From NCBI RefSeq assembly GCF_004920835.1, contig NZ_QFHO01000009.1, positions 62,001 to 126,000 of the forward strand: 64,000 nucleotides of DNA. Direction: 5' to 3'. This DNA comes from Stenotrophomonas maltophilia. Its GTDB lineage: Bacteria > Pseudomonadota > Gammaproteobacteria > Xanthomonadales > Xanthomonadaceae. The stretch's first letter is position 1, and each line of letters starts with the position of its first letter. This document shows positions 1 to 15,661 of this stretch, piece by piece. Made by a program: the position numbers and the translations under genes. Below the pieces are notes generated by a model. It saw only the letters and a program-made list of their open reading frames with translations. It was not told where the DNA came from and ran no database searches.

Positions 1-1329
1 AGAGGTTAGGTTGCCGATGTCAATCACAATGTAGAACGCTTGGGTCGTCCCTTCCGCACCTTTGTAAGCTTCAAGTTGCTTTGTGTAGCCAGCAACAAGC
101 TTTGAGTTTGTGGATCGCTTGAGTTCAGCGAGAACCTTAACATTGGCGCCGTTGGACATCTTGAAGTCTACCGGCCCACATCCTGCGTCTGACTCGGGGG
201 ATAGGTCGAGGTTGTTCGCCTCGCAGTAAGCAGCCGCGACTGCGTAAAATAGGCGCTGCATTGCCTTCTCTAAGCGGGCTGTTGTCAATTTTTCGTTCCA
301 CAGCTCTTTCCAGAGTCCCTTGTCCTCAATTAGCGACTTGAACTTGTCGATTATTTTCGTCACGGCATCCGTCGCTTCGGCCAGATTTAACGTCCGTCCA
401 GAGTATTGATGCAGTGACAATGGCTCTGTGGCTGCTATGCGCTTTCTTAGCTCTGCCGGATATATCTCGCCGCGATGGTCATTCTTCAGGTCGTAAGGGG
501 CATCCGCCGCAGCGCGAACCAAGTCCAGAAGCATTTCAAAAGAGGTTTTGCTTTTAAGGGCGATCTTAAGTGTCTCATCCTTGTCGCGTCTCGTTTTCGC
601 CCGCCAGATGTCGCCAATCTGAGCGCTCACTCTATTCTTAAGGTCTTCGGTTACCTGAGCAGCTTCGCTTATCGCGCTCCAGTCGGCAGCAATCGGAAGG
701 TCTCTAACGATGTCGCGCGGAACCAGGAGGATTGGCTCGCTGGGCTTAAGCGGGTTCCACGGGAGCTGGTGCTTCTTGCCGGCCAGCGTAAAAGCTTGAA
801 CTTGGATTTCGAGCTGCGTGCATGCCCTAAGTGTAAATGCAGCTAAGCAGTCGACCAGTATGTTGGTCGTCATATCGCTGATGCGGTCTGGGCCCACTCC
901 TGCTTCAAACAAGCAGAGAACCATGAAAAGGTTGGGATCCCGAACTCCAATGGAAATGGCTTGCTTGGCGTTGATAGCCAAGTTGTCTATAAGTTGCGAG
1001 CCAAACCCCGAGCCGGAAGTCCCGCTCGAGTAGCCAAGATGAGTGTAGGGGACTTCGTGAAATTTCAGTAGATTTCTGGCGGACCTATCTGCGAGGTCGC
1101 CGCCTTGCTTCGATTCTGCAAGCAGGGCACATATGTTCTCAAACCTCGAGGTGTACGCTTCGGTTGCGCACTGAGCAAACTCGTCGTCTGATGCATCATC
1201 CAGAAGGAGTGGGTCGATGAAGAGGTTGGTGTCACAATTGAGTGTCACATCAATCGCACCCACAGATTCCAGTTGCGTCTGGGTGACCTTCCACGCCATC
1301 GAAAGTGTTACTGGTTCATTAGAGGTCAT
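1..1329 (-). CDS. PD-(D/E)xK nuclease-like protein, C-terminus cut by window edge
   Basis: Reading the minus strand from ATG at 1329 gives 443 uninterrupted codons that run off the left edge, so the gene is partial. AAGGA lies just upstream of the ATG. I do not recognise the family. The visible C-terminal part has the layout of a PD-(D/E)xK nuclease core: GPVDF with D388, then LAELK with E402 and K404, then Q418 and Y422 in a QLEAY helix, followed by a hydrophobic strand (FYIVIDIG). The first 350 residues look like a mixed alpha/beta scaffold with a Gly/Ser-rich stretch (GYSSGTSGSG). An anti-phage or mobile-element nuclease is a reasonable inference from the fold and the island context. Substrate and partners are unknown, and a partner could lie left of the window. 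Confidence 0.8.
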   Translation of the reverse strand, partial: MTSNEPVTLSMAWKVTQTQLESVGAIDVTLNCDTNLFIDPLLLDDASDDEFAQCATEAYTSRFENICALLAESKQGGDLADRSARNLLKFHEVPYTHLGYSSGTSGSGFGSQLIDNLAINAKQAISIGVRDPNLFMVLCLFEAGVGPDRISDMTTNILVDCLAAFTLRACTQLEIQVQAFTLAGKKHQLPWNPLKPSEPILLVPRDIVRDLPIAADWSAISEAAQVTEDLKNRVSAQIGDIWRAKTRRDKDETLKIALKSKTSFEMLLDLVRAAADAPYDLKNDHRGEIYPAELRKRIAATEPLSLHQYSGRTLNLAEATDAVTKIIDKFKSLIEDKGLWKELWNEKLTTARLEKAMQRLFYAVAAAYCEANNLDLSPESDAGCGPVDFKMSNGANVKVLAELKRSTNSKLVAGYTKQLEAYKGAEGTTQAFYIVIDIGNLTS

Positions 1330-1778
1330 CGCGATTCCTTCAGATCCAAGCTTGTCCGTTTGAGAAGGGCAAGCGGTTCTTCCGTTAACAGAGCAAGTGC
1401 ACGAATATCTTGTTGCTGAGTTTGGACCTGCCGTCAGTGCTTCTCACTACTGAATCACTTGCTCCAATGACCAAGCACTCATTGCCATTGCGGAGTTGAG
1501 TAGTCCCATCGCCAGTGGGCTCACACCCATTTGGTTTTTCCCAATAGGTCGGAAGGTCTGGATTTTTTTGAGTACGATCCGTTGGCTTCGGCGGCCCGGC
1601 ACGGTTCACCCAAGATCATTCGCGTTATGGCATGAACTGTGACGGCGGTCAAGTTGCCGAGCCCCTTGTTCTGTTTTTGGGGATTTAGGTGCGCGGCACT
1701 GCGGACGATCCTCATCCAAACACCGCCTCGCATCCTGTCCTAAGTTGGCTCTATCGCCACTTACGGACAACCCGCCCG
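1330..1778. other. Intergenic region between nuclease-like gene and integrase
   Basis: No convincing gene. The best candidate is a weak minus-strand ORF at 1385-1609 (74 codons, GTG start) with no recognisable domain and no good ribosome binding site. The region probably holds the divergent promoters of the flanking genes. No complete tRNA is seen here. Confidence 0.4.
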
Positions 1779-2981
1779 ATGTCATCCGTCCTCACCAAGC
1801 GCATCGTTCTCACCGCTGAGCCCCGAGAGCGCCCCTATGAGCTCAGGGACGCTCAGGTTCGCGGCCTGATCCTGCGTGTGCAGCCTTCAGGGCATAAGGC
1901 TTGGATCGTGACCTGGGCGCACGGTAAGCGTCGTACCTTGGGGTCGGTCGAACATCTGACACTTGATCAGGCCCGTGACCAAGCCCGGCAGGCCGTTGCT
2001 GAGTACGTTCAGTCGGGATTGCCAGCGCTCGCAAAGACCAAGCCCACCAGTTGCACTCTCGAAGTGCTCCTTAACGACCACTTCGAACCCTGGGCGATAG
2101 CTGAGCTCAAAGGTGGTCGTCAGTACCCGGACCGCATCCGATCGGTGTTCCCGTGGCTGCTGCGTCGCCAGATCATCGAAATTGACGTTCCCACAATGGA
2201 GCGATGGTGGCGCGGTCGTGTCACTGGCCCTGACGCAGTCACCAAGGCTACCGCAGCGCGCGACTTTGCTTGCCTGCGGTCTGCCTTGTCTCGGGCCGTT
2301 GAGTGGAAGCTGATCGAGACGAACCCCTTGATGGGCATGCGTCAGCGATCAGCCGCGAGCCGCAAGGTCGTTCGGTTCCTGTCCCCGGATGAAGAAGCGA
2401 TGCTCCGGGCCGCGCTGGCAGCGCGCGATCTAGCTGGGGTTGAGGGGAGGGCGAACGCGAATGCGGCCCGACGTAAGTACCGGCAAGCGGTTCTGCCTGA
2501 CTTGCCGATGGACGGTTATGTCGATCACCTGACCCCGGTGGTCCTTACAGCCATCAATACCGGCATGCGGCGGGGTGAGCTGCTGTCGATGACATGGGCT
2601 GATATCAATTGGGAAGCCAAGATGCTGACCATTCGCGCAGAGAACGCGAAGTCCGGTAGGCAGCGTCACATTCCATTGAACACCGAAGCCATGGAAGTCC
2701 TGCAGCGTTGGGCCGGTCAAGCGGGTGAGCGACGTGCGGGCAAGGTGTTCGACGTGACCGATATCAAAAAAGGGTGGCGCAAGCTGATTGCAGATGCCCG
2801 CATTGAACAGTTCCGGTTCCATGACCTGCGGCACCACTTCGCATCGCGTCTGGTGCGGGCAGGGGTGGACCTAAACACTGTGCGCGAACTGCTAGGCCAT
2901 GCAGACATCACTATGACTCTTCGCTACGCACACTTAGCCCCTGACACTTTGGCGGCGGCTGTTGCCAAGTTGGCGGCGTGA
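1779..2981 (+). CDS. Tyrosine recombinase integrase, P4/DUF4102 type
   Basis: A 400-residue site-specific recombinase that would integrate and excise the island at a tRNA gene. The N-terminal part (about residues 5-90, with GLILRVQPSG and ARDQARQAV) matches the arm-binding DUF4102 domain of P4-type integrases. A SAM-like core-binding domain follows, then the catalytic domain. All catalytic residues are visible: R264 in TGMRRGE, K in the AKSGRQRHIPL strand, H348 and R351 in HDLRH, H374 in LLGHADI, and nucleophile Y383 in LRYAHL. I chose ATG 1779 because the frame is open 30 codons further upstream but that stretch does not resemble an integrase N-terminus. The gene points right, toward the Xre gene. 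It probably acts on the tRNA-Thr tail at 10878. Confidence 0.95.
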   Translation: MSSVLTKRIVLTAEPRERPYELRDAQVRGLILRVQPSGHKAWIVTWAHGKRRTLGSVEHLTLDQARDQARQAVAEYVQSGLPALAKTKPTSCTLEVLLNDHFEPWAIAELKGGRQYPDRIRSVFPWLLRRQIIEIDVPTMERWWRGRVTGPDAVTKATAARDFACLRSALSRAVEWKLIETNPLMGMRQRSAASRKVVRFLSPDEEAMLRAALAARDLAGVEGRANANAARRKYRQAVLPDLPMDGYVDHLTPVVLTAINTGMRRGELLSMTWADINWEAKMLTIRAENAKSGRQRHIPLNTEAMEVLQRWAGQAGERRAGKVFDVTDIKKGWRKLIADARIEQFRFHDLRHHFASRLVRAGVDLNTVRELLGHADITMTLRYAHLAPDTLAAAVAKLAA

Positions 2982-2986
2982 GAGCG

Positions 2987-3391
2987 CTATTCCCGCTGCT
3001 CGCCAGCCAAACGCTCGAGCTCTTCCCGCATCCTTTGGCGCTCCCCAGAGGGAAGCTTGGCGAAAGCCAAGATCGCTGCAGCCAGGTCATCGTCTTCAGC
3101 GAATAGATAGGCGACCGGTACATCCAATGCCTTGGCTAACTCCGCAGCCTTGGTCATGTCGGCTTGGTTTCGTTCGCGCTCGTACCTGTTGATCAGCACG
3201 GCACCCCGGTTCTTGTCCTGATCCCTATCCACCAGCGCCCCCAGCGCGCGCTGGGACAGCCCGCGCAGTGCTCGAGCTTCGGAGAGCCGCTTGGAAAACG
3301 TTGCAGTAATGACAGTGGGCGAGGGCACGCGGAGGTAACGGTCTGTGAACCTGCAGCAGCATGGGCCATATACCTGATCAGTAGAAGTCAT
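2987..3391 (-). CDS. Xre/Cro-CI family transcriptional repressor
   Basis: A helix-turn-helix DNA-binding protein, convergent with the integrase gene and likely the regulator of the island's integrase or excision functions. The HTH domain is clear: FSKRLSEARALRGLSQRALG, followed by INRYERERNQ and AAELAKALDVPVAYLF. The C-terminal tail is short, helical and charged, and lacks a LexA-type peptidase domain. The start is uncertain. ATG at 3391 lies 9 bases after a TATACT on the minus strand, which would suit a leaderless mRNA as seen for lambda cI, but the 20 residues it adds before the HTH are cysteine-rich and unusual. GTG at 3328 is the alternative. Neither has a clear Shine-Dalgarno sequence. 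Confidence 0.85.
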   Translation of the reverse strand: MTSTDQVYGPCCCRFTDRYLRVPSPTVITATFSKRLSEARALRGLSQRALGALVDRDQDKNRGAVLINRYERERNQADMTKAAELAKALDVPVAYLFAEDDDLAAAILAFAKLPSGERQRMREELERLAGEQRE

Positions 3392-3409
3392 TACCATATC
3401 AGTATATGG
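3366..3409. promoter_or_regulatory. Candidate repressor operator pair
   Basis: CCATATCAGTATATGG (3394-3409) is a perfect inverted repeat of six bases around a CAGT spacer. A related CCATATAC half-site lies at 3366. The palindrome overlaps a minus-strand TATACT and sits directly at the 5' end of the Xre gene, so autoregulation is the simplest reading. Confidence 0.55.
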
Positions 3410-3477
3410 CGTTGTGCGAGGTATGACTGGCCGCAAGGGGTGGCCGGGCCCGTCAGCGCTCAGTCGGGGACGTTGGG

Positions 3478-4011
3478 ATGAAGAACCGGATTACGCATTT
3501 TGCCGTCATGTCGTTGGTGCTGACTGCTGTTGTTCCCGGGGAGGTAGTGGCTCAACAACAGCGGTCATACGACCGTTTCAAGGATCGAACCTCGTACGAG
3601 GCCAAAGTGGAGCTATCGGAGCTGTCCAAGACCAGCAGGGGCATTTCTCTGAGCCTGCAGAGCGTGGTAGACGGAGACCGCGCTGTAACGAAGTCGGACT
3701 CTTTCACCGTTTCGGCCATCGTCACCTTCAACATGTCCTATGACGTTCGCTGTGCCGGTACGGGCTTTGACATGCTCGTGGACGGAAGGGCTGTTTCGCT
3801 TCCCAGCGACATGCCCGCTTTCAATCGATATGAGTACGCCATCCTTTCCTTCGGCAAGAAGATGACCTTGGCAGAAGCAGGGGCTTTCGCTGGTGCCAAA
3901 AGGATCGAGGTCCGGGTCTGCGATACCGAATACAGCCTAGATGACGAGCAGCGCGCTGCGCTGCGCGATCTGGTCAAAGACGCGCAGATGGGTAGTTCAA
4001 CCGGTGGCTGA
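3478..4011 (+). CDS. Secreted protein of unknown function
   Basis: A 177-residue protein I do not recognise. The first 25 residues form a Sec signal peptide (basic start, hydrophobic VMSLVLTAVV, probable cleavage after VVA), so the mature protein should be periplasmic or secreted. The rest looks mostly beta-stranded with two cysteines (VRCAG and VRVCD) that could form a disulfide, and a charged helical C-terminus (DDEQRAALRDLVKD). It is followed after 40 bases by a small membrane protein gene in the same direction, and the two probably share a transcript ending at 4450. Confidence 0.7.
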   Translation: MKNRITHFAVMSLVLTAVVPGEVVAQQQRSYDRFKDRTSYEAKVELSELSKTSRGISLSLQSVVDGDRAVTKSDSFTVSAIVTFNMSYDVRCAGTGFDMLVDGRAVSLPSDMPAFNRYEYAILSFGKKMTLAEAGAFAGAKRIEVRVCDTEYSLDDEQRAALRDLVKDAQMGSSTGG

Positions 4012-4051
4012 TGTCGGAAACCCCCGCACATCCCATCATGGAGGAGAGAAC

Positions 4052-4393
4052 ATGCAAACCAGCGATCCAGCAACTAACCTTTATCAATGCCCGGCTTGCC
4101 GTGCTGCCATCCCCTCGGGTAGATCATCCGCGAAGTGTCCTAAGTGCTATGCGGACCTGCCCAAGGCAATTGTTGAATCGAATCGTGCGAGCGCGAACGC
4201 CCGGGAAGAGCGTGGCTCGACAGCGGCGTGTGTGGCATTGGGGCTAGTCGCACTCGCCATTGGGCTCTACTTCCTGATCAACCCCTCAGCAAACGGTTAC
4301 GGCAATATTGCCAACATGCATGCGCTCGCAGTGGGGCAAGCACTGACCATTGCTGGGGCTGTGTTCCTGGGGCTTGGTATCCGCCCTCGTTGA
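4052..4393 (+). CDS. Small zinc-ribbon membrane protein
   Basis: A 113-residue protein with a double-psi of cysteines at the N-terminus (YQCPACRA and AKCPKCYAD), typical of a short zinc ribbon. Two membrane helices follow (VALGLVALAIGLYFLI and ALTIAGAVFLGLGI). ATG 4052 is preceded by GGAGGAG at the right distance. The open frame continues upstream into the previous gene, but the Shine-Dalgarno sequence supports this start. The function is unknown. The architecture suggests a membrane-anchored adaptor with the ribbon in the cytoplasm. It resembles the 8070-8408 gene in layout (ribbon plus two helices), but the order of domains is reversed. Confidence 0.7.
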   Translation: MQTSDPATNLYQCPACRAAIPSGRSSAKCPKCYADLPKAIVESNRASANAREERGSTAACVALGLVALAIGLYFLINPSANGYGNIANMHALAVGQALTIAGAVFLGLGIRPR

Positions 4394-4415
4394 GCGACTA
4401 AATACATCCCAACCG

Positions 4416-4450
4416 GGCCCGCTGATGGCAACGTCAGCGGGCCTTTCTAT
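4416..4450 (+). terminator. Rho-independent terminator
   Basis: Perfect 10-bp stem GGCCCGCTGA / TCAGCGGGCC with an 8-base loop, followed by TTTCT. It lies 23 bases after the zinc-ribbon membrane protein gene. Confidence 0.85.
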
Positions 4451-4798
4451 GTCAGTTGATGCACCATCTGGCTGCTGTCTCAGTCGCCGGGTTAGCAGCA
4501 TCGAGTAGGCGCTCTAGGATCGCGCTACCGATCAATGTGGGGCTGTCCGAGGACTGTCGATGCAGGGGTGTAGCTGCTTCACCAGGCGAGCCTTGTGCAG
4601 CGATTGGCGCATTGGCAGACATTGGGCTTTTAGTGCGGATGCGGATGAGTTGCGTCCAAAACACGAAGTCCTAGGTGGTTCGCAAAAGTCGCAGTGCATA
4701 AGCGGCGAAGTGGCGTCGTCGGCAGAATCACTCCATACATAGCATGACGCACCGTGCTGACTGTCGTGCGATCGCCTGCTACGTGTATGCCTGCGACA
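4451..4798. other. Intergenic region, no gene seen
   Basis: No reading frame here has a plausible start site and protein-like composition on either strand. The short plus-strand frame at 4456-4674 has no ribosome binding site and no hydrophobic or domain pattern. Confidence 0.4.
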
Positions 4799-5296
4799 TC
4801 AGGGAGCCCGCATGTACTTTGCCCTCTCCTCAATCCGCCTTTTCTCCCGTGCAGTGTTGAGCTTTTTGATCGTCTCGAACAATTGTTGCCACTCTAGCGG
4901 CGACAGATCGCATTTGGCCCTCTCGAAGCAATCCTCCCAGTCAGCAGCTGCCTGGGCAAGCAGGACTCGCCCCTCCTGCCTGATTTGAAGTCCACGAGAC
5001 CGGTCATCCAACGGCCTGTCCTCTAGAAGTTCTTCTCTGATCAATCGGGCGACGAGAGACGACATCGACGAAGGCGCAACTTTCATGAGCCGGGCCAAGC
5101 TGGCTCGGGTCAGTGGTCTTGCCTTGGAGGAATCGGCCCGAGCTATCGCATCTAGCACCATTAACGCGGGGGTGGAGAGCTTGATGGGCTTGTATAGCAA
5201 TAGCTCTGCATCCAACTCGCCGGTCAAGTCATTAGCAAGGATCAGGAGTTCCTTGAATTCAGCATGCGATAGGGGGGTGTAGGGTGCGGTTGCCAT
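4799..5296 (-). CDS. MarR-like winged-helix regulator
   Basis: A 165-residue DNA-binding protein. The middle section (about residues 60-115) is a winged helix: LTRASLARLMKVAPSSMSSL forms the helix-turn-helix with its recognition helix, and the wing is marked by LDDRSRG, the place of the conserved DxRSR/G of MarR proteins. The N- and C-terminal helices (DLTGELDAELLLY and QQLFETIKKLNTAREK) would form the dimer interface. No ligand can be deduced. It is divergent from the gene at 5412 across 115 bases, so self-regulation and control of that gene are likely but not shown. Confidence 0.75.
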   Translation of the reverse strand: MATAPYTPLSHAEFKELLILANDLTGELDAELLLYKPIKLSTPALMVLDAIARADSSKARPLTRASLARLMKVAPSSMSSLVARLIREELLEDRPLDDRSRGLQIRQEGRVLLAQAAADWEDCFERAKCDLSPLEWQQLFETIKKLNTAREKRRIEERAKYMRAP

Positions 5297-5411
5297 ACCG
5301 CATTTTAGGTTGGCGGACTATTCGACTTCAATGAGTCCCCCAAATTATTCGCCCTCAATATTGCTTTCGACGGAGGCCGCCGGCAACCGCGACAAAAGAA
5401 GGGAAAATTCA

Positions 5412-5864
5412 ATGAAGAAGAATAGCTGCATCGAGCGCTCGACCCGCCTGTTTGCTGCGCAGCGCGAAGGTAACGAGGCATCTCGCGTCGCCCAGTACAG
5501 CATTGCTGAGGAAATCATGGGCCCGGAATCGCTTTCTGCGGAAGATTGCTGCAAGGCGCGACGGGATTCTGCGTGTCGCGACATGACTGCTTTTGAGGCA
5601 ACGATGGAGTTCGCCAAGGTGATCCAGCTCAACACGGGTGCCGCTGATCGTCGCTACGACCTGCGTGTCTGCGACGAACCGATGTTTCGCGCTATCTGGA
5701 GGGCCCGTCAGCTGGTTGACATGACGGGCATCAACTACCGCGACTACGTTCGGCGTGCTGTGACCTACCTGCGCCACTGCGGCAAGAAGCGCATCACTCC
5801 CGCAATGCTTGTCTCTGCTGAAGTGCAGCTGCACGTGATGGAGCTCGACGCCGTCAGTCGCTGA
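5412..5864 (+). CDS. Unknown protein with a WRAR-type domain shared with the 6167 gene
   Basis: A 150-residue soluble protein I do not recognise. ATG 5412 follows AGAAGGGA and is preferred over the upstream open frame, which is low in protein character. Residues about 89-120 (EPMFRAIWRARQLVDMTGIN, then YRDYVRRAVTYL) align closely with residues about 132-163 of the protein encoded at 6167 (RSVITSLWRARQKADELGMP, then YDLFCEVVMERW). The two proteins therefore share a helical domain centred on an invariant WRARQ. The N-terminal half has no such match and contains several cysteines (EDCCKARRDSAC). The gene is divergent from the MarR-like regulator. Confidence 0.65.
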   Translation: MKKNSCIERSTRLFAAQREGNEASRVAQYSIAEEIMGPESLSAEDCCKARRDSACRDMTAFEATMEFAKVIQLNTGAADRRYDLRVCDEPMFRAIWRARQLVDMTGINYRDYVRRAVTYLRHCGKKRITPAMLVSAEVQLHVMELDAVSR

Positions 5865-5944
5865 GGTCCGAGCCGGTAGCGGCCCTTGCCGACCATGTTG
5901 GGTGCGGAGGGGACCCTCTGCGCCTAACGGCACTAAGGAGCGTG

Positions 5945-6037
5945 ATGGCTAGGGATGGCCTGGGACCAGGTGAAGTTCAGGCTGTCACGTTTGGCGATAG
6001 CGCCATCCAACCGCTTGGGGGTCGTTCCCTCATCTGA
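5945..6037 (+). CDS. Possible 30-residue small ORF
   Basis: ATG at 5945 is preceded by a strong Shine-Dalgarno sequence (TAAGGAG with a 4-base spacer) and opens a frame of 30 codons ending in TGA at 6035. The peptide is not hydrophobic and has no recognised motif. It lies 130 bases before the 6167 gene and could be a leader peptide, a genuine small protein or the remnant of a larger gene. Confidence 0.3.
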   Translation: MARDGLGPGEVQAVTFGDSAIQPLGGRSLI

Positions 6038-6106
6038 CTCGCGTCAATCCATTGCGCGCCCGCAGCGGAAGCGTTCGGGCGCGCCGTGCGCTAGTGAACA
6101 TAAGAA

Positions 6107-6139
6107 GACCGGCGATTTCATCGACCCGGTCGGTATAAC
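6107..6139 (+). promoter_or_regulatory. Inverted repeat and -10-like element before the 6167 gene
   Basis: GACCGG (6107) and CCGGTC (6126) form an inverted repeat around 13 bases, followed at once by TATAAC (6134), a plausible -10 about 30 bases upstream of the ATG. A repressor binding here would block the promoter. The -35 is not convincing. Confidence 0.35.
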
Positions 6140-6166
6140 ACTGTCTCTATCGAGGAGGGCAGGAGA

Positions 6167-7240
6167 ATGGCTAGGAACAAGAAGTCGGGCGCGACGGGCG
6201 GGAAGGTAAAGGTGAAACGGCCTAACCCGGCCCGAAAGAAGGCGTCTGCGAAGAGCGTGATGGAGGCGCAGAGCAGGGATGCCTCGTATCAACGCGCGCT
6301 GAAGTCGGCTGATCCCGTGAAGCGACAGGTGGGAGAGCTGGTCTTCCAGCGCACGTACATCGATAAAGGCTTGCTTGCCAAAGAGGCATTGTTGCTTCGC
6401 ACCCGTTGGATCGGGAACCGCTACATGTCCCCGGTGCAGGCCACGCAGGCGTTCACGGAGGCATACATCGCTGCGTACCGTGCTGCTTGGGCGCGTCACT
6501 TTGACTATTCCGAAGCGCCGCACAAGCAGCCCTGTATGCCAAGTCTCGCATTGAACGACAGGTCGGTTATTACCAGCTTGTGGCGGGCCCGTCAGAAGGC
6601 TGACGAACTGGGAATGCCGTACGATCTGTTCTGCGAGGTCGTCATGGAACGATGGATTGTGGGCCGGAAGGCGAAGCGCCCACCATTGCCAAACCAGCTG
6701 ACTTCCGGGAAGTTGTTCGGTGTATGGATGCGAGGACACCCCACCTGGGCTGAGACTAGTGAACGGTTGTTCTTGCCCGCTTGGGATCGGCGCTTCTTTA
6801 TGGAGCCGTCTGGAGAAGATCCCGTGCATGCTGCGGCAATGCGGGCATTGAGTGCCGATGTGCTGCACGCAAAGGACCGCCCCGCCCGATTGGCGCGGTA
6901 TCTTGGGGCTGGTGGACCGCTGACAGAGGCGCGTGCCAAGGCGATGTTTGAAGCAGACATGGTCCGGGATGCGCTAGCGATGGTCGCCGTGCCTGCTGAG
7001 GTCAACGAAGCGCCTGAAGGATACGTTCCGGCGTGCATCGGCAATCGTAACGACGTGCGGGATATGCCGTGTCACAACTGCCCATTCGCCGTGCAGTGCT
7101 CGAGCGTAAAGCGGAAGGTGACACGCGCGCTGAACGCGGCAGGCACCTCTGGCGATCCCCGTGCGGACAGGAGGCGTGAGCAGAACCGGAACAGCCAGCG
7201 CAAGCATCGCGAGGAGCAACGGCGAAAACTGGCTGCATAG
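6167..7240 (+). CDS. Unknown basic protein with WRAR-type domain and WhiB-like cysteine motif
   Basis: A 357-residue protein preceded by a strong ribosome binding site (GGAGGGCAGGAG). The first 45 residues are rich in Lys/Arg, as is the last 25 (RRREQNRN and KHREEQRRK), which suggests nucleic-acid binding. Residues about 132-163 repeat the WRARQ domain of the 5412 protein. Four cysteines near the C-terminus, C290, C302, C305 and C311 (CHNCPFAVQC), have the C-Xn-C-X2-C-X5-C spacing that binds an iron-sulfur cluster in actinobacterial WhiB proteins. This is a motif resemblance, not proof of homology, and a zinc site is also possible. The function is unknown. A DNA-binding island regulator is a reasonable guess. 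Confidence 0.7.
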   Translation: MARNKKSGATGGKVKVKRPNPARKKASAKSVMEAQSRDASYQRALKSADPVKRQVGELVFQRTYIDKGLLAKEALLLRTRWIGNRYMSPVQATQAFTEAYIAAYRAAWARHFDYSEAPHKQPCMPSLALNDRSVITSLWRARQKADELGMPYDLFCEVVMERWIVGRKAKRPPLPNQLTSGKLFGVWMRGHPTWAETSERLFLPAWDRRFFMEPSGEDPVHAAAMRALSADVLHAKDRPARLARYLGAGGPLTEARAKAMFEADMVRDALAMVAVPAEVNEAPEGYVPACIGNRNDVRDMPCHNCPFAVQCSSVKRKVTRALNAAGTSGDPRADRRREQNRNSQRKHREEQRRKLAA

Positions 7241-7256
7241 CGAGCGCCAATAAGGT

Positions 7257-7628
7257 CTTATGAGCGCAAACGAGCTTGCTTGTCAGCGGCCCCATAAGAG
7301 CTATAAATCAAGAGCAACTACCTTCTCTTTGAGAAGGTAGATATTTATTGGGATGCCAACGTTGATGTCCCGTGACTGGTCCCATCGGTACTCGGGCCTT
7401 CGGCCCTCGCACCTCGGGTCCAGATGCGCGCCCCTTCGGGGACGCGCAGAAAATTATAGCCGGGGTTGTGTGGAGAGCGCGCCTCGGAGTCATTGAGGAT
7501 GACCTGTAAGCCTCTGTGTTGAATCCCACCGGTGTTTGCGTAGGGGTGTCGCTGGCCGGTCCTGCAGCGCGCTCAGCGAGCTTCTGGTGAGCCCTGGCGA
7601 GCATCCTGCAGGCCGCTTATGAGCGCAA
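7257..7628. repeat. Pair of 13-bp direct repeats
   Basis: CTTATGAGCGCAA occurs at 7257-7269 and again at 7616-7628, same orientation, bracketing the hairpin-rich segment. The first copy also pairs with CATAAGA near 7291, giving a 7-bp stem (TCTTATG / CATAAGA). The length is short enough that chance cannot be excluded. Confidence 0.45.
7310..7450 (-). ncRNA. Possible structured RNA (strand uncertain)
   Basis: In a gene-free stretch of 830 bases, three hairpins lie in a row: a perfect 10-bp stem with a 3-base loop (7318-7340, CTACCTTCTC / GAGAAGGTAG), a 5-bp stem (7394-7406, GGGCC / GGCCC) and a long stem with one mismatch (7425-7448, TGCGCG / CGCGCA enclosing CCC / GGG). On the minus strand the two inner loops both read CGAAG, and a perfect TATAAT lies at 7458-7453, just before the outer hairpin. 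The perfect stem near 7318 would then be the 3' end. No good -35 or long T-run is seen, so transcription is a hypothesis. Confidence 0.35.
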
Positions 7629-7666
7629 CCTCCCGGCAATCACTGTGATGTATAGATTGCTCGCCC

Positions 7667-7843
7667 ATGTATGCAGTGTTTATGACGATCCACATGACAC
7701 ATGGTCGATTCGATGGCTACCCGGATGATCATGTCGATTGTTGTGAACCGCAGTTGTCATTGATCCACGGCGAAATTGGCCACGAGGTTGCACGGGGACT
7801 TGGTCGTGAAAGCGCGCTTTGGAGGTCCCGCATGCGGATGTAA
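7667..7843 (+). CDS. Possible 58-residue small ORF
   Basis: ATG 7667 to TAA 7841 encodes 58 residues, beginning MYAVFMTIHMTHGRFDGYPD and ending in a basic tail. It has no clear Shine-Dalgarno sequence and no recognised domain. Apart from this frame and the hairpins, the 7241-8069 stretch contains nothing I can call. Confidence 0.2.
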   Translation: MYAVFMTIHMTHGRFDGYPDDHVDCCEPQLSLIHGEIGHEVARGLGRESALWRSRMRM

Positions 7844-8069
7844 AGCGCATACGAAGCGCTATCAAAGTCCATGTGCCCTAAGCCTAACGTGCAACGTGTG
7901 GGCGGCGGTGTACGAGCTCGTGCCTGCAACCGCAAGACGTGGTGGCCATGTATGAAGCGTACGGTGGTGTTCGATCTTGTACGGGCGGTAAAGAATGTGT
8001 TCCTTTCAAGTCTCATCCCCTGCGACCGATATGCTCAAGGATGCATAAAACAATCAGCGGGACGGCTAC

Positions 8070-8408
8070 ATGGATCGTTGGACGTGGATGATAGTAAGGA
8101 TGTATGCGCCCGCACTTGGGGCCTTGGCGCTGGGGTTGCTGCTGATGCTGCCGTTGGGAATGCTCCGGGAGAGTCCGGTGCTTGCAGGGGTGTATGCGAT
8201 GGCGCGATGGCTCCCTGCGTTGGCTATCGCGGTATCGGTCACCCTTGCACTTGTCGCTACTCTAAGGCTTTGGCGCTGGGATCAAGGGCGCAGCGCTTTG
8301 GTTTGCGAATGCGGTGGCTTACTGGGACGGGAGCGTCCTGGGCGTTTTGGTGCATATCGAAAGTGTCTCGCCTGCAACCGTAACGTCAATGAGAGGTACT
8401 ACACGTAG
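8070..8408 (+). CDS. Small membrane protein with C-terminal zinc ribbon
   Basis: A 112-residue protein with two membrane helices (about residues 13-32, APALGALALGLLLMLPLG, and 48-66, LPALAIAVSVTLALVATL). A cytoplasmic-looking C-terminal ribbon follows, with two cysteine pairs, CEC in LVCECGG and CLAC in YRKCLACNRN, about 18 residues apart. I preferred this frame over the longer overlapping plus-strand frame at 7871-8383 because only this one shows membrane segments and paired cysteines. The function is unknown. It is the second zinc-ribbon membrane protein in the island. Confidence 0.6.
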   Translation: MDRWTWMIVRMYAPALGALALGLLLMLPLGMLRESPVLAGVYAMARWLPALAIAVSVTLALVATLRLWRWDQGRSALVCECGGLLGRERPGRFGAYRKCLACNRNVNERYYT

Positions 8409-8777
8409 GTTCGGTCTCGAGGCGCATACACCGCAAGCCGCTGTCCGCCTTGAAAGTAGGTGTGAGTCCAACCTGGCTTTCCATGGGGCTTCACGGGCCC
8501 GAATCGGCTCAAAGTGACGGCTACTTGGCTTACAAGGCACTTATCGGCACCCTGGTTGCCAGTTGGGGTTGGCTAAGTCGTTGATCCAAAAGGACGCATG
8601 ACCATCTGTGGTGCCATGAGTAACTGCATCAGTACTGCGCGGGTCGTTCGCGCGGTCTCTATGAAATTCGATCAAGGTGGATGAGGTTCATTCGTATTTG
8701 GTTTGGTACAGAAACGGCTGGCGAGCATACGTTCTACCCAGCTAAAGTACATGCGTGATAAATGCAGGGACAGGCAT
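8409..8777. other. Intergenic region upstream of the OLD-family gene
   Basis: No gene or strong hairpin is seen in this stretch. It presumably contains the promoter of the OLD-family gene. The open frame of that gene extends to 8703, but the extra residues are unlike the family N-terminus. Confidence 0.4.
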
Positions 8778-10709
8778 ATGTCGAATAGATCAAAGCTGGT
8801 GCGCATGACTGTGCGCAATATTGGATGCATTGGCAGCAGTGGCGTCAAAATCCAACTTGATGATGTTGTGTGCTTGGTGGGGCGCAACAATGCGGGCAAG
8901 TCCACAATCCTGAGAGCGTACGAGCTTGCAAAGGGGTCGCAGACCTTTATGGCGTCTCGGGATCGCTGCCTCTCAGCACCCACGCAGGAGGCATCTGAAG
9001 TCGAGCTCGAAGTCCACATTCCGGAAGGCATCGGGAATGTAGATCCTAAGTGGAAGACTAAGCAAGGCGATCTCTTGGTGGTTCGTAGTCGTTGGCAGTG
9101 GGCCGCGCCTGATTTCAAGCCTGTCCGCACGACGTGGGACCCCGAAGGTGGGCCCGATGGAAATGGCGGCTGGGCCGAGGATGGCAAAGCCGGGGGGGCT
9201 GATAATGTGTTCAGCGCCAGACTTCCGCGTCCTCTCCGCATAGGTTCGCTCGATGACGCGGAAAAGACGGAGAGTAGTCTGCTGACATTGGCGCTGGCAC
9301 CACTGTTGGCAATGATTGAAAAAGAGCGAAGCAACAGAGAGTCCGAACTGGCAAGAGCAATCAATGAAGTCGCGACCAAGGTCAATGGTATAAGTGCGAC
9401 CCATCAGAACCACTTCAACGCCATTGCCGGGAATCTCACCACTGGCTTTAAGCGCGTTTTCCCGAAGTTGGATGTTCGACTGGAAGTAGGGGCGGCGCCG
9501 TTTGCGCCGAAGATTGATTCCCTGGTCAAAGACGGCTCTGGTCTTCGCATCAAAGATGGTAATGCGAATACTACTTTGAGTCAGTAAGGAACCGGAGCGC
9601 GGCGAGCGTTGTTTTGGGCGATGTTACAAGTCCATAACGAGATGACGCGAGAAAGGGAGCTGCGGGATGAGTACAAAAAATCTTTGCAGAAATTGATAGC
9701 AGAGGAGAGGAAAAAGAAGGCGAATGCGGATGATGTAAGGATCGGTGAGTTGCAAACTCTCCTTGCCGCTCATGAGGAAGGTGCGGCAATACCACAAAGC
9801 CCCGATGATCCCGCGCTGCCTGGGTATCTCTTGCTGATCGACGAGCCGGAGAATGCGCTTCATCCGATGGCTGCGCGCGCTGCACAACGTCACCTCTACA
9901 AGCTTGCAGAGAGCGCAGATTGGCAGGTCATGATGACGACGCACTCTCCGTATTTTGTAAATCCTCTCGAAGATCACACTACTATTGTACGGTTGGAACG
10001 CAAAGAGGGAAATGACAGTAGCCCAATTGAGCCGAAAACATATAGGTCAGATTCCATACAATTTGAGGGTGATGACAAGAAAAGGCTTCAGGCCCTGCAG
10101 CACATTGATCCTAGCCTTGCGGAGATTTTTTTCGGGTCGTACCCCGTTTTAGTTGAGGGCGATACCGAGCACGCCGCGTTTCTAGCATCTATCGTCGAGG
10201 CGCAGCACCGCCTGATGGAGCAGGTCACCATCGTGCGAGCTAGAGGGAAAGCCATTCTTGTGGCTTTAATTTCCATCATGCGCCATTTCAAGATTGATTT
10301 CGGTGTAGTGCACGACTGCGATCCGCCGTACACCTCCGAGGGCAACGCGAATGGCATGTGGACGCAGAACGGGAGGATTCACGATGCAATCATCGCAGCT
10401 CGAGCTGATGGTGTAAAAGTCAGGCACCGCGTCAGTATTCCCGATTTCGAGCGGTTCCTTGGCGGGTCAGAGGAGTCAAAGGACAAGCCTTTGAACACGT
10501 ACAGGAGGGTCGCTGACGACGAGTTGCTCGCTGAGCGTGTGCAGGTGCTCCTGGGTGATTTGTTAGAGAGCGAGCAGCATGAGCCCTTCCCTGAAACGAA
10601 ACTTCCTCCCAATGCGGACTATCTTTTCACGTTGAAGGAGTTGGTAAGCACTTGGGCTGCGGATAACGGTATGCTTTCAAGTCTTCGATACAAAGGTAAA
10701 GACGGCTGA
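8778..10709 (+). pseudogene. OLD-family ATPase/TOPRIM nuclease, interrupted by an in-frame stop
   Basis: Read through one stop codon, this frame gives 643 residues of an OLD-family protein, an ABC-type ATPase joined to a TOPRIM nuclease, known in several anti-phage systems. The Walker A is GRNNAGKST (residues 35-43), the Walker B is LLLIDEPE with D355 and E356, followed by TTHSPYF, the switch histidine. The TOPRIM acidic residues are E460 in PVLVEGDTE and D513/D515 in VHDCDPP. TAA at 9585-9587 replaces codon 270, between LSQ and GTGARRALFWAM, inside the ABC signature region. The frame is unchanged on both sides, so a single CAA-to-TAA change explains it. The 5' piece alone has Walker A only, and the 3' piece has everything else. 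ATG 9621 could restart translation but has no Shine-Dalgarno sequence. Confidence 0.85.
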
Positions 10710-10877
10710 CTAGCGTGTAGGCGGTTCGTTGGGTTGCTAAGTATCTCTCCGGCGATGCTTTGCGCGGGATTGGTACTTGGCTTAAGGGGCACTTTCCGGC
10801 CCAGGCAGGGAGGTATTCGATGGTCAATGCATTGATGTGTAACGTTTATTTGCCTTGCCGAGGGGGGCTAGGCTGGG

Positions 10878-10922
10878 TTCGTAATGCGTAGGTCGCAGGT
10901 TCGACTCCTGTTTCCGGCACCA
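10878..10922 (+). other. tRNA-Thr(CGT) 3' fragment, likely attR of the island
   Basis: The 45 bases start with the anticodon loop TTCGTAA (anticodon CGT), continue through the 3' anticodon stem TGCGT, a T-arm with GCAGG TTCGACT CCTGT, and end in TTCCGGCACCA. The same half of Escherichia coli thrW, a known integration hotspot, reads almost identically. The 5' side of the anticodon stem is replaced by unrelated sequence, so no tRNA is made here. This is what a P4-type integrase leaves at the far end of an island. Confidence 0.8.
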
Positions 10923-10932
10923 GTTGCAATGA

Positions 10933-10962
10933 AAAGCCCCGGCCTTGGTCGGGGCTTTTTTT
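10933..10962 (+). terminator. Terminator behind the tRNA-Thr tail
   Basis: AAAGCCCCG / CGGGGCTTT stem followed by seven T. It belonged to the original tRNA and was copied with it at 12463. Confidence 0.85.
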
Positions 10963-11036: not shown

Positions 11037-11174
11037 AATTTCCGAATCTCGCGGCCAGCCCGGCTTCCCAGGCGCTTAGCGCCGCGCCCTGTTCCCGATC
11101 TGGAAACCGCACCCGGCCATTCCTGTGCTATGAATACACGGCCTTGCTTCAAGGCACTTTCAGGGATTGGAAGG

Positions 11175-12131
11175 ATGCGCAGGTTCGGGGGAACTGCAGG
11201 CGGTGTGTCGACCAGCTTCAGGGGAGTTGAAGATCAAATTCACAAGCTGGGTGCCTTAGGCGCTTGGCTGTGCTGCGTGCTGCTGATCGGCCTTGGCGTG
11301 TCGCCAGCCGCAGTTGCCCAGACGACGGTCACGTACATCCACACGGACGCGTTGGGCTCGGTCGTGGCTGAAAGCGATGCCAACGGCAACGTGATCAAGC
11401 GCTATGACTACGAGCCCTACGGCGCCGTGGTAGGTGGTCAGGTCACGGACGGACCGGGGTATACCGGGCATGTGAGCGATGCGGCCACCGGGCTGAGCTA
11501 CATGCAGCAGCGGTACATGGATCCGCAGCTGGGTGTGTTCCTGTCGGTGGATCCTGTGACGGCGTATGAGCAACCGGTTGGGCAGTTCAATCGCTATCGG
11601 TACGCGAACGGGAATCCGTACAGGTTCACGGATCCAGACGGGCGGGAGAGTGGTGCAGCCTTCAAGGTAGTCAACGACGCCACGAATGGGCAGCCGATTA
11701 CTCCACCGCCCAAAAATCCAAGCGACAGACTCGGGCCGGCAATTGGCGCTGCACTGACAGCAGTTCTGGCCGCTCCAGTGCTGGCAGAGGTAGGTCTGGT
11801 CGCAATGGCAAATCCAGGAGCAGTTGCCACGGCAGCCGAAATTGGTGCAGGAGCTGCTGGTGTCACGGGCACCTCTGGCGCGGTGGCGGGAAAGATCACC
11901 GGGTACACGAAGCATGGGTTGAATCAGGCGATCTCCCGCGATGGTGGCAGAGGTGTTTCTGCAAAGGCCATACTATCGGCGGTAAAAGACCCTGCGAAGG
12001 TCGCCGAGCAGGTCGGTGGCAGGACTGCTTACACCGGGAAAGATGCGAAGGTAGTCCTGAATGGTGAGGGGAAGGTCATAACTGCCATTCCAAGAAGCAG
12101 CGATGGGTTGAGAGACCCGAAGGTGAAGTGA
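11175..12131 (+). CDS. Mini-Rhs toxin 1 (signal peptide, Rhs core, nuclease-like tail)
   Basis: A 318-residue protein. After 24 residues comes a hydrophobic signal segment (GAWLCCVLLIGLGVSPAAVA, likely cleaved before QTT). A single Rhs/YD core segment (YIHTDALGSVV, YDYEPYG, YMDPQLGVFLSVDP) ends at the DPDGRE junction where Rhs proteins are normally cut. The remaining 155 residues are unique: a Gly/Ala-rich segment, then TKHGLNQAIS and GKDAKVVLNGEGKVITAIP, a pattern seen in small RNase-type polymorphic toxins, which I infer with low confidence. Usual Rhs proteins have over a thousand residues of YD repeats, and here all but one are missing. ATG 11175 is in the place shared with copy 2; ATG 11130 is an in-frame alternative. 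The immunity candidate starts one base after the stop. Confidence 0.8.
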   Translation: MRRFGGTAGGVSTSFRGVEDQIHKLGALGAWLCCVLLIGLGVSPAAVAQTTVTYIHTDALGSVVAESDANGNVIKRYDYEPYGAVVGGQVTDGPGYTGHVSDAATGLSYMQQRYMDPQLGVFLSVDPVTAYEQPVGQFNRYRYANGNPYRFTDPDGRESGAAFKVVNDATNGQPITPPPKNPSDRLGPAIGAALTAVLAAPVLAEVGLVAMANPGAVATAAEIGAGAAGVTGTSGAVAGKITGYTKHGLNQAISRDGGRGVSAKAILSAVKDPAKVAEQVGGRTAYTGKDAKVVLNGEGKVITAIPRSSDGLRDPKVK

Positions 12132-12132
12132 A

Positions 12133-12390
12133 ATGAAACGGTCTATCTCGTCCCGTCTGCATTCTCTGTTGGTTGAAATCGCAGCGAAGCACAGCCTTCA
12201 CTTGCCTGAAGAGGGCATCAAGCACCTTGTCAAACAGGACCGCGAGTCGCTGATCGATGCATTAGTGCAAGAGTTTTCGGAGACCGGTTTGGGATCTGAC
12301 GATGAGCCTAATCAACGAGGCGTCGAGATCGAAGAGATCATCGATTTCGTTGGCGCTATCGCTAATCAGACTGATGCGTCCAGCGACTAG
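12133..12390 (+). CDS. Putative immunity protein for mini-Rhs toxin 1
   Basis: An 85-residue acidic, helical protein with no recognised family. Its start is one base after the stop of toxin 1, so the two are translationally coupled, the usual layout of a toxin and its immunity protein. The C-terminal half is strongly acidic (SDDEPNQ, VEIEEIIDF), which would suit binding a basic nuclease domain. The assignment rests on position and size only. Confidence 0.6.
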   Translation: MKRSISSRLHSLLVEIAAKHSLHLPEEGIKHLVKQDRESLIDALVQEFSETGLGSDDEPNQRGVEIEEIIDFVGAIANQTDASSD

Positions 12391-12421
12391 GCAATGGTTT
12401 ATTTGGAGTCGTAGGCGGCTG

Positions 12422-12495
12422 GGTCGCAGGTTCGACTCCTGTTTCCGGCACCAGTTGCAATGAAAAGCCCCGGCCTCTAGTTGGGGCTTTTTTTT
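12422..12495 (+). repeat. Second copy of tRNA-Thr tail and terminator
   Basis: Bases 12422-12453 repeat the tRNA T-arm and acceptor end with CCA, identical to 10891-10922. The terminator (AAAAGCCCC / GGGGCTTTT with eight T) follows at 12463-12495. The copy lacks the anticodon loop, so it is shorter than the one at 10878 and marks the 5' edge of the duplicated module. Confidence 0.85.
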
Positions 12496-12705
12496 GTGCT
12501 CTGGTAGTGCTGGCCGTTGGCCGGCACCCCCAGTAGTGCCAGCCCATGGCTAGCAGCCCGCGATTCCCGAACCTCGCGGCCTGCTGGCCCCCCGGCTTCT
12601 CAGGAGCCTAGCTCCTAGCACTGTTCCTGACCCGGAAACCGCAGCTGGCCATTCCTGTGCCATGAATACCAGCCTTGCTTCAAGGCTCTTTCAGGGATTG
12701 GAAGG

Positions 12706-13677
12706 ATGCGCAGGTTTGGGGGAGCTGCAGGCAGCGTGTCTACCTGCTTTAGGGGATTTGAAGATCGAATTCGCCAGCTTGGCGCCATAGGTGCTTGGCT
12801 GTGCTGCGTGCTGCTGATCGGCCTTGGCCTGTCGCCAGTCGTAGTTGCTCAGACGACGGTCACCTACATCCACACGGACGCTTTGGGCTCGGTTGTGGCC
12901 GAGAGCGATGCCAGCGGCAACGTAATCAAGCGCTATGACTACGAGCCCTACGGTGCCGTGGTGGGTGGTCCGGTCACGGATGGACCGGGGTATACCGGGC
13001 ATGTGAGCGACTCGGCCACTGGTCTGAGTTACATGCAGCAGCGGTACATGGATCCGCAGTTGGGCGTGTTCCTGTCGGTTGATCCGGTGGTGGTTGATGC
13101 GAGGTCTGGTGCGAAGTTCAATCGATACGCTTACGCCTTGAGCAATCCATACAAATTCATCGACCCGGACGGTCGTGATGAAGAGTGGTTCTCAAACGTT
13201 GATCAGATGGGGAACCCTGGCTTCGGGAATGAGCTCGGAGACGATGCTTTTCACTACAATGGGAAGGCTCTCATAGCTGTGGGCATAGGTGGTCCAACGC
13301 TACCAGGCATTCTTCGAGCGATCGCTGCCCCCTTTGCCAGGGCTGCCGCAGCAGAGATGCGAGGTCGCACCGTTGCTGGAGTGAAGGTTGGGGATAGCCC
13401 TGCTGATACCAGGTTGGCGCTGGAGGAGGCTGGGTTCATGGGTACACGGATATCAAACGAAGCAGGCACGGAATCGGGAACGCTTCACAATGTGCCGTCT
13501 ATGAAGATGGACGTTAGAGTCATGGATGGAGGGCCGAAGCATTCACCTAGAATATCGGTGACCCGAGAAGGTAATCCGCGTCAGCCCGTGAATCCTGAAA
13601 ATGGGAAGAACTTCGGCAATATTCCCAAGGGTGAGCAGCGCACGAGAAGTCATATCTACTATCGAGAGAAGCCGTGA
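12706..13677 (+). CDS. Mini-Rhs toxin 2 (signal peptide, Rhs core, unknown tail)
   Basis: A 323-residue protein with the same front end as copy 1: a signal segment (GAWLCCVLLIGLGLSP), then one Rhs core, then NPYKFIDPDGRD at the junction. The unique tail of about 170 residues has a hydrophobic stretch (AVGIGGPTLPGILRAIAA) and a globular end (PSMKMDVRVMDGGPKHSP, QRTRSHIYYREKP) whose family I do not recognise. A nuclease or other toxin activity is inferred only from the Rhs arrangement. The stop codon overlaps the ATG of the next gene (TGATG). GGAAGG directly before ATG 12706 is rather close for a ribosome binding site. Confidence 0.75.
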   Translation: MRRFGGAAGSVSTCFRGFEDRIRQLGAIGAWLCCVLLIGLGLSPVVVAQTTVTYIHTDALGSVVAESDASGNVIKRYDYEPYGAVVGGPVTDGPGYTGHVSDSATGLSYMQQRYMDPQLGVFLSVDPVVVDARSGAKFNRYAYALSNPYKFIDPDGRDEEWFSNVDQMGNPGFGNELGDDAFHYNGKALIAVGIGGPTLPGILRAIAAPFARAAAAEMRGRTVAGVKVGDSPADTRLALEEAGFMGTRISNEAGTESGTLHNVPSMKMDVRVMDGGPKHSPRISVTREGNPRQPVNPENGKNFGNIPKGEQRTRSHIYYREKP

Positions 13678-14180: not shown

Positions 14181-14261
14181 TGTGCGAGTGCTGCGTGGCA
14201 AGATATTCCCTGTGCGATGAATGCCCAGCCTTGCTTCAAGGCTCTTTCAGGGATTGGAAGG

Positions 14262-15246: not shown

Positions 15247-15248
15247 CA

Positions 15249-15620: not shown

Positions 15621-15661
15621 AACCTGTGAGTCCGTTCGAATTTCATCGGTTTTCAGATTAA

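What the first reader, a model, noticed from the sequence alone, without database searches (positions are those of the whole stretch)
8778..10709. OLD-family defence-type nuclease broken by one TAA in its ABC signature
The same frame is open on both sides of a single TAA at 9585; all ATPase and TOPRIM motifs are otherwise intact. One C-to-T change explains it. Possible readings are recent inactivation of a costly defence gene, an on/off state within the population, suppression, or a sequencing error. The lack of further decay suggests that the event is recent.
Basis: seen in the sequence. Interest (0 to 1): 0.65.

Follow-up and report, generated by a model that had tools for sequence, protein, structure and literature searches.

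The report
Freshly broken phage-defence gene on island
A stand-alone OLD-type phage-defence gene, sitting in the cargo slot of a small mobile island whose defence cargo differs between host species, has been cut in two by a single stop codon so recently that nothing else in it has visibly decayed; this is an ordinary loss of function in an informative setting.

Summary
Frame 8778-10709 (+) encodes an OLD-type ABC-ATPase/Toprim protein of 643 codons, interrupted by one TAA at 9585 (codon 270), between Walker A and the rest of the ATPase. It is the only disabling change found. Of 145 alignment columns invariant in 29 other copies, the focal copy departs at one, the stop; this bounds neutral decay at about 0.5-0.85% divergence.

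All 30 relatives compared have a sense codon there. None of 65 tRNAs reads UAA, and no repeat or donor copy for a reversible switch was found. Neither fragment holds a whole ATPase. Most likely this is a recently inactivated class 1-like OLD gene; an assembly error cannot be excluded.

The setting is the more useful result. The gene fills the cargo slot of a tRNA-Thr-integrated element. The backbone (1697-8655) is intact and 94.6% identical to a congener's; sister elements carry genes matching Hachiman, RT-TIR, restriction and methylase models in the same slot. Five of 41 relatives elsewhere are broken by other lesions, so loss recurs; whether selection drives it is not shown.

The parts
8778..10709 (+). 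Interrupted OLD-type gene (643 codons plus final stop)
9585..9587 (+). The single in-frame TAA, codon 270
8778..9587 (+). Fragment 1 (269 aa): Walker A only
9588..10709 (+). Fragment 2 (373 codons): signature-equivalent region, Walker B, H-loop, Toprim; no Walker A; nearest internal start candidates TTG 9609 and ATG 9621 have unremarkable Shine-Dalgarno energies
8880..8906 (+). Walker A, residues 35-43
   Evidence: motif name recalled, Pfam AAA_15 match
9588..9617 (+). Signature-equivalent stretch, residues 271-280, directly after the stop
   Evidence: motif name recalled
9831..9866 (+). Walker B, residues 352-363
   Evidence: motif name recalled
10143..10181 (+). Toprim glutamate motif, residues 456-468
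   Evidence: motif name recalled
10311..10322 (+). Toprim DxD motif, residues 512-515
   Evidence: motif name recalled
1697..8655 (.). Conserved backbone of the integrative element, 94.6% identical over 6962 nt to a congener's element (L148); homology ends at 8638-8655 in the six sister elements that match the slot-side end at 88% or more
1779..2981 (+). Tyrosine integrase with Arm-DNA-bind_3 domain
8656..10874 (.). Cargo slot, filled here by the OLD gene
10878..10960 (+). Copy of the 3' end of tRNA-Thr(CGT) plus its terminator, 97.6% identical: attachment-site repeat at the end of the element (the intact tRNA ends 2862 bases before the window)
1..1329 (-). Gene (480 aa, runs on to window -113) weakly matching PADLOC candidate defence protein PDC-M36A, between the degenerate left repeat and the backbone

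Best explanation
This is a recently inactivated allele of a stand-alone (class 1-like) OLD nuclease gene. An integrative element carried the gene into the chromosome at tRNA-Thr(CGT), as the cargo of its variable defence slot. One nonsense substitution then ended translation at codon 270. The ribosome makes a 269-residue fragment that holds Walker A but no Walker B, signature-equivalent region or Toprim domain, so no working ATPase-nuclease is made. Shown: the frame, the stop, conservation of everything else, the element's ends and its intact backbone. Inferred: loss of function, recency in time, order of events, and that the intact protein was an anti-phage nuclease.
For: Open frame on both sides and complementary profile matches. 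Best PADLOC model 'Old' 7.8e-65, next best 4.7e-24. Best sequence match among solved structures and best fold match both TsOLD, 6p74. All 30 relatives compared read a sense codon at the column. Of 145 invariant columns the focal copy departs at one, the stop; the five other copies whose nearest relative is likewise below 70% identity depart at 1 to 5. With no other stop, frameshift or invariant-residue change, decay is bounded at about 0.5-0.85%. Eight backbone genes are open and match sister copies over their whole length. Element ends and boundary. Walker A lies before the stop and the other motifs listed after it. In P2 Old the Toprim metal-binding residues and the Walker A lysine were all required to kill recBC- cells (PMC10568477, section on class 1).
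Against: Draft assembly of 81 contigs, no reads, no second strain of the species; one base may be an error. OLD proteins can tolerate damage: in E. coli YbjD the Toprim domain is dispensable and even a Walker A mutant kept the anti-phage phenotype, with more toxicity (PMC13261556, passages). There, however, deletion of the ATPase domain abolished it, and neither fragment here contains a whole ATPase domain. The fold match to TsOLD is of the whole layout with a large rmsd (10.8, TM-scores 0.47 and 0.58).
Confidence: 0.82

Rival explanations
1. The stop is a base-call or assembly error and the gene is intact and working.
For: Single position; every other constrained residue is intact, which an error would also produce; draft genome of 81 contigs.
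Against: The eight backbone genes tested are open and full length and long frames run through the rest of the window, so there is no sign of a general error burden; a relative (L020, Comamonas suwonensis) independently shows the same kind of lone nonsense lesion, though that too is a draft scaffold.
Confidence: 0.1
2. Two-fragment protein: translation restarts after the stop and the Walker A fragment and the Walker B/Toprim fragment reassemble into a working enzyme, as separate lobes of ABC heads can in Rad50/SMC-type proteins (recalled).
For: The break falls between Walker A and the signature-equivalent helix; in-frame starts TTG 9609 and ATG 9621 follow closely; all constrained residues in both halves are intact.
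Against: Shine-Dalgarno energies of -6.9 and -3.7 are unremarkable against random positions (10% quantile -7.5, median -4.2); the strongest of the 13 downstream candidates shown, TTG 9750 at -7.6, only just passes the 10% quantile and would start at residue 325. None of the relatives examined is split at this place.
Confidence: 0.04
3. Reversible population state or nonsense suppression keeps some full-length protein.
For: Residue conservation alone cannot exclude low-level readthrough.
Against: None of the 65 tRNAs found has an anticodon for UAA; no direct repeat of 10 bases or more in 9300-9900; no donor copy in the genome.
Confidence: 0.03

Closest known systems
Class 1 OLD nucleases (P2 Old, Thermus scotoductus OLD 6p74, E. 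coli YbjD)
   Same: N-terminal ABC ATPase, C-terminal Toprim, single gene with no helicase or reverse transcriptase found beside the focal copy; best profile, sequence and fold matches
   Different: 643 residues against 528 for the TsOLD chain; an invariant QQG at the signature-equivalent site in the relatives compared; sits among defence genes, while class 1 is described as not found near other candidate defence genes (PMC10568477, section on class 1); interrupted here
Gabija GajA (class 2 OLD)
   Same: ATPase-Toprim layout and fold
   Different: No GajB-type helicase next to the gene; weaker PADLOC matches (best GajA 1.8e-23)
PARIS AriA/AriB
   Same: ATPase plus Toprim chemistry; AriA is the second-best PADLOC model
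   Different: PARIS keeps the two on separate proteins (recalled; AriB as a Toprim nuclease in the abstract start of PMC12409363); here one frame is cut inside the ATPase
P2/P4 hotspots that carry anti-phage genes (PMC9122126, abstract start in the search listing)
   Same: Variable slot in a mobile element that holds defence genes
   Different: Backbone matches PHROGs for integrases, repressors and unknown families only (8 backbone proteins); no relation to P2 or P4 was tested beyond that
Defence islands of Stenotrophomonas maltophilia (PMC11680222, passages and section 3.6)
   Same: Defence islands mostly flanked by or containing tRNA genes, some with putative phage satellites; one island (#9) is reported to hold old_exonuclease in four related strains
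   Different: That the present host is of that genus is my guess, and I could not match the tRNA-Thr element to one of its numbered islands

Membership tests
Class 1 OLD nuclease | N-terminal ABC ATPase with Walker A and Walker B | tested here: met
   (in the read-through protein)
Class 1 OLD nuclease | C-terminal Toprim domain with acidic residues | tested here: met
   PF20469 match above the curated cut-off; Glu and DxD motifs among invariant columns
Class 1 OLD nuclease | Single gene, no UvrD-type helicase or reverse transcriptase partner | tested here: met
   Met for the focal copy: backbone genes without such domains upstream, attachment repeat downstream. Inconclusive for relatives: neither appears among the 25 families shown of 72 found in 69 neighbours of 30 loci, a cut list
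Class 1 OLD nuclease | One continuous polypeptide | tested here: not met
   TAA at codon 270: inactive allele of a member, not a working member
Class 1 OLD nuclease | ATPase, nuclease or anti-phage activity | not testable with these tools
   none
Gabija (class 2 OLD) | GajB helicase beside GajA | tested here: not met
tRNA-targeted integrative element with defence cargo | Tyrosine integrase, tRNA target and direct repeats at the ends | tested here: met
   the left-hand repeat at window -510 is degenerate (80% identical)
tRNA-targeted integrative element with defence cargo | Conserved backbone with exchanged cargo in relatives | tested here: met
   only 4 of the 14 congener regions keep the slot-side backbone
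tRNA-targeted integrative element with defence cargo | Excision and transfer | not testable with these tools
   none

The most novel reading that the evidence does not exclude
An undescribed family of tRNA-Thr(CGT) elements shuttles interchangeable defence systems between species of this genus. Hosts keep the element but switch off incompatible cargo by point mutation. The interrupted OLD gene would be a snapshot of that edit, with backbone and attachment sites still fit to move and the cargo alone dead.
Probability: 0.3. Interest if true: 0.55.

Novelty: new member of a known kind. Interest (0 to 1): 0.33.

Why it matters
Defence genes are thought to be gained and lost quickly (recalled), but loss is mostly seen as absence of the gene. 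Here the element, its ends and its backbone survive and only the cargo carries a disabling change, so an early step of loss is visible. A set of similar backbones with different cargo would let the cost of one defence gene be compared with others in the same slot. If the stop is an error, the locus is still a usable new OLD homologue in an exchangeable defence slot.

Tried and rejected
Suppressor tRNA: 65 tRNA matches in the own genome, all 65 named by ARAGORN; one has a stop-codon anticodon, tRNA-Sec(UCA). Rejected within the draft assembly.

RecBCD deficiency as the cost of the gene: the frames holding the RecC domain (1171 aa) and RecB (1278 aa) are open, so not supported. RecD was not tested.

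Phase variation: no direct repeat of 10 bases or more in 9300-9900, one short palindrome at 9870-9883; two homopolymer runs (A6, A5) start 88 and 124 bases past the stop and leave the frame intact.

Programmed or conserved readthrough: rejected, since all 30 relatives compared have a sense codon.

Conserved partner gene: none shared by all loci. An nSTAND3 NTPase is the most frequent neighbour family, 6 of 69 scanned; 69 of the 100 neighbouring ORFs listed were scanned, mostly the shorter ones dropped.

Other alleles of the same gene: a pattern scan of viral contigs found 0; genus, family, class and phylum samples held none closer; of the plasmid collection's two records at 80-90% identity, the one shown (Caballeronia sp. 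SBC1) covers 49 residues at 83.7%, and the other was not seen.

Papers: full-text searches. Searches returned 0 papers. Nothing describing this element was recognised in the listings, which is weak evidence: most subscription papers are not held, I read only parts of four papers, and the host genus used in two searches (Stenotrophomonas) is my guess from gene content.

Full report
OBSERVATION. The window sequence was read directly. Translating 8778-10709 on the + strand gives 643 codons and a final stop with one internal stop, TAA at 9585-9587, codon 270. The halves match complementary stretches of the same models: PADLOC 'Old' positions 3-243 with the first and 257-462 with the second, 7.8e-65 for the read-through protein, next best model (AriA) 4.7e-24; Pfam AAA_15 and AAA_21 on both sides and OLD-like_TOPRIM after the stop. 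Among solved structures the profile's best match is Thermus scotoductus OLD, 6p74, 1.1e-23, also the top Foldseek match of the model (mean pLDDT 80.1; E 3e-21, TM-scores 0.47 and 0.58, rmsd 10.8). GajA structures come next in both.

WHERE THE STOP FALLS. Walker A is residues 35-43; the signature-equivalent stretch (271-280), Walker B (352-363), the H-loop (387-391) and the Toprim motifs (456-468, 512-515) lie after the stop (motif names recalled). In the model a helix begins at residue 272. So the first fragment has half an ATPase site and the second the other half plus the nuclease.

IS IT AN ISOLATED LESION? I compared the focal copy with 30 relatives whose matches are full length or nearly so (one of them, L020, itself interrupted elsewhere), from plasmid records and one-genome-per-species contigs. 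All 30 have a sense codon at the column. Leaving out the most distant relative (L039), 145 columns are invariant in the other 29; the focal copy departs from one, the stop itself. In the same leave-one-out test the other copies depart from 0 to 5, and the five whose nearest relative is below 70% identity (L010, L016, L030, L036, L038; the focal copy's is at 70%) depart from 1 to 5. If the gene had been free to drift, the lack of any further stop, frameshift or invariant-residue change puts a 95% bound of about 10-16 substitutions, 0.51-0.85% of its length, depending on the assumed transition bias and indel rate (both are assumptions). Synonymous and variable sites are not informative without a close relative.

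DO RELATIVES BREAK TOO? Leaving out the focal copy, I hold 41 loci of this subfamily: 29 from genome contigs, 5 further ones of the 6 fetched from plasmids (of 71 plasmid records with any match; the sixth, L010, duplicates L031), and 7 that match over nearly the whole length among 19 viral-contig loci (three of the seven have the same identity to the query and may be one sequence). Five of 41 are broken: L020 by one in-frame TAG at residue 444; L012 by a frameshift with an IS3 transposase gene directly behind it; L041, whose match ends at residue 239; L042 and L043, matching only residues 30-122 and 44-122 although their contigs run on. None shares the focal lesion. Not counted: L147 from the phylum sample, which is open (it may repeat one of the 29), two Rhizobium plasmid copies that I did not fetch, and short high-identity matches in plasmid records, of which one was seen, 49 residues at 83.7% in Caballeronia sp. 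SBC1. Loss is thus recurrent, but I have no matched control rate for other genes and do not claim an excess. The subfamily is rare: 1 of 369 class genomes (the own) and 2 of 398 phylum genomes (the own and L147's) at E<=1e-80.

CAN THE STOP BE BYPASSED? 65 tRNA genes were found in the 4.56 Mb, 81-contig genome; ARAGORN named all 65 and one, tRNA-Sec, has a stop-codon anticodon, UCA. No direct repeat flanks the stop and the genome has no second copy to recombine with (26% partial match only). In-frame starts at 9609 (TTG) and 9621 (ATG) have Shine-Dalgarno energies of -6.9 and -3.7 against a 10% quantile of -7.5 and a median of -4.2 at random positions; a later one, TTG 9750, reaches -7.6; the gene's own start has -5.1. 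Restart is possible but there is no positive sign of it.

SETTING. An intact tRNA-Thr(CGT) ends 2862 bases before the window. Copies of its 3' end plus terminator lie at window 10878-10960 (97.6%), 12422-12495 (92%) and, degenerate, at -510 to -441 (80%). A tyrosine integrase of the Arm-DNA-bind_3 type lies at 1779-2981. Window 1697-8655 is 94.6% identical over 6962 nt to an element at the same tRNA in another species of the genus (L148), and the eight backbone proteins tested match L148 over their whole length. In the six sister elements that match the slot-side end of the backbone at 88% or more (L148, L154, L157, L179, L180, L181) identity ends at window 8638-8655; the more distant L161 ends at 8393. 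Beyond that point the content is replaced: PLD/DrmC-like plus RT-TIR in L148, with reading frames of the same or similar size in L179; HamA and HamB plus a PLD/DrmC-like protein in L154; an HD protein and an N6/N4 methylase with others in L157, with frames of the same sizes in L180; type IIG restriction-methylase plus Ppl in L161 (PADLOC and Pfam model matches). L181 reaches a contig end. The OLD gene occupies this slot alone, 122 bases after the boundary and 168 bases before the repeat. A marker protein for the backbone's slot-side end (window 8070-8405) is found in 16 of 91 genus genomes at E<=1e-10, at 92% identity or more in 7 including the own. Backbone genes are open, so the only disabling change found in the element is in the cargo; the PDC-M36A-like gene has no close relative here against which its integrity could be judged (26% match to L148).

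Against a simple picture: of the 14 congener regions first examined, chosen because one search listed a second tRNA-end match near the tRNA and so not a random sample, only 4 (L148, L154, L157, L161) keep the slot-side backbone; five (L150, L151, L152, L155, L158) share only integrase-side stretches of it (L155 also 5578-5860), L156 shares 48 bases of it, and the other four (L149, L153, L159, L160) only the tRNA end and neighbouring RHS-like DNA. The L179-L181 set was then chosen for carrying the marker protein; the two more distant carriers fetched with them, L182 and L183, share almost none of the backbone DNA (131 bases in L182, none listed for L183).

Between the tRNA and the degenerate repeat lies a TIR-domain gene (L044:18556-19431), and window -113..1329 holds a protein weakly matching candidate defence family PDC-M36A (1.1e-10).

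BASE COMPOSITION. The OLD frame has 53.4% GC and GC3 58.5%, against GC3 85-92% for five window genes taken as conserved (names recalled from their translations) and 68-70% for two backbone genes, in line with acquisition from elsewhere.

HOW IT WORKS AND WHAT IS LOST. By family, an intact protein would be a class 1-like ATPase-Toprim nuclease. For P2 Old the Toprim metal-binding residues and the Walker A lysine were all required to kill recBC- cells (PMC10568477, section on class 1). In YbjD the Toprim domain is dispensable and a Walker A mutant keeps the anti-phage phenotype with more toxicity, but deletion of the ATPase domain abolishes it (PMC13261556, passages). So it is unlikely, not excluded, that a fragment here works alone. 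Why the gene was lost is open. The recBC-linked killing of P2 Old gets no support, since RecB and RecC frames are open here; general toxicity on expression, reported for YbjD, remains possible.

PRIOR WORK. A survey of S. maltophilia defence islands reports tRNA genes within or beside most of them, putative phage satellites in some, old_exonuclease in one island of related strains, and systems that may be inactive (PMC11680222, passages and section 3.6). If the host is of that genus, which I infer but did not test, this element may fall among those islands.

VERDICT. A real, isolated and recent nonsense lesion in a mobile class 1-like OLD gene, with assembly error the main rival. By itself it is ordinary; the exchangeable defence slot around it is the part worth following.

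Noticed in passing
window 1697-8655 with slot 8656-10874; sister elements in L148, L154, L157, L161, L179, L180, L181: Small tRNA-Thr(CGT) integrative element with a conserved backbone and interchangeable defence cargo across species of the genus; a second variable stretch lies around window 4740-5578.
   Followed up: partly
L018:3503-5806, L025:8321-10393, L027:8071-10335, L028:8151-10430, L029:8119-10431: These five neighbouring genes of OLD relatives are related to one another; PF20720 (nSTAND3 NTPase) matches 6 of 69 scanned neighbours and I take these five to be among the six. Possible recurrent pair, absent from the focal slot.
   Followed up: partly
L020:6531-6533: OLD relative in Comamonas suwonensis interrupted by a single in-frame TAG at residue 444, otherwise open: an independent lone nonsense lesion in the same family.
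   Followed up: yes
L042 and L043: OLD remnants in Aliiruegeria lutimaris and Celeribacter baekdonensis whose matches both end at residue 122.
   Followed up: no
window 11059-15931: Tandem copies of an RHS-like region (families of 3 and 4 copies, 74-93% identical to the reference copy, spacing about 1.3-1.6 kb); the tRNA-end repeat is also repeated at 12422-12496.
   Followed up: no
L044:17928-19434: DUF4760 protein followed by a TIR-domain protein between the tRNA-Thr and a degenerate attachment repeat: a probable second, smaller defence insertion.
   Followed up: partly
G000:C13:9465-9555 (L145): The genome carries a tRNA-Sec gene.
   Followed up: no
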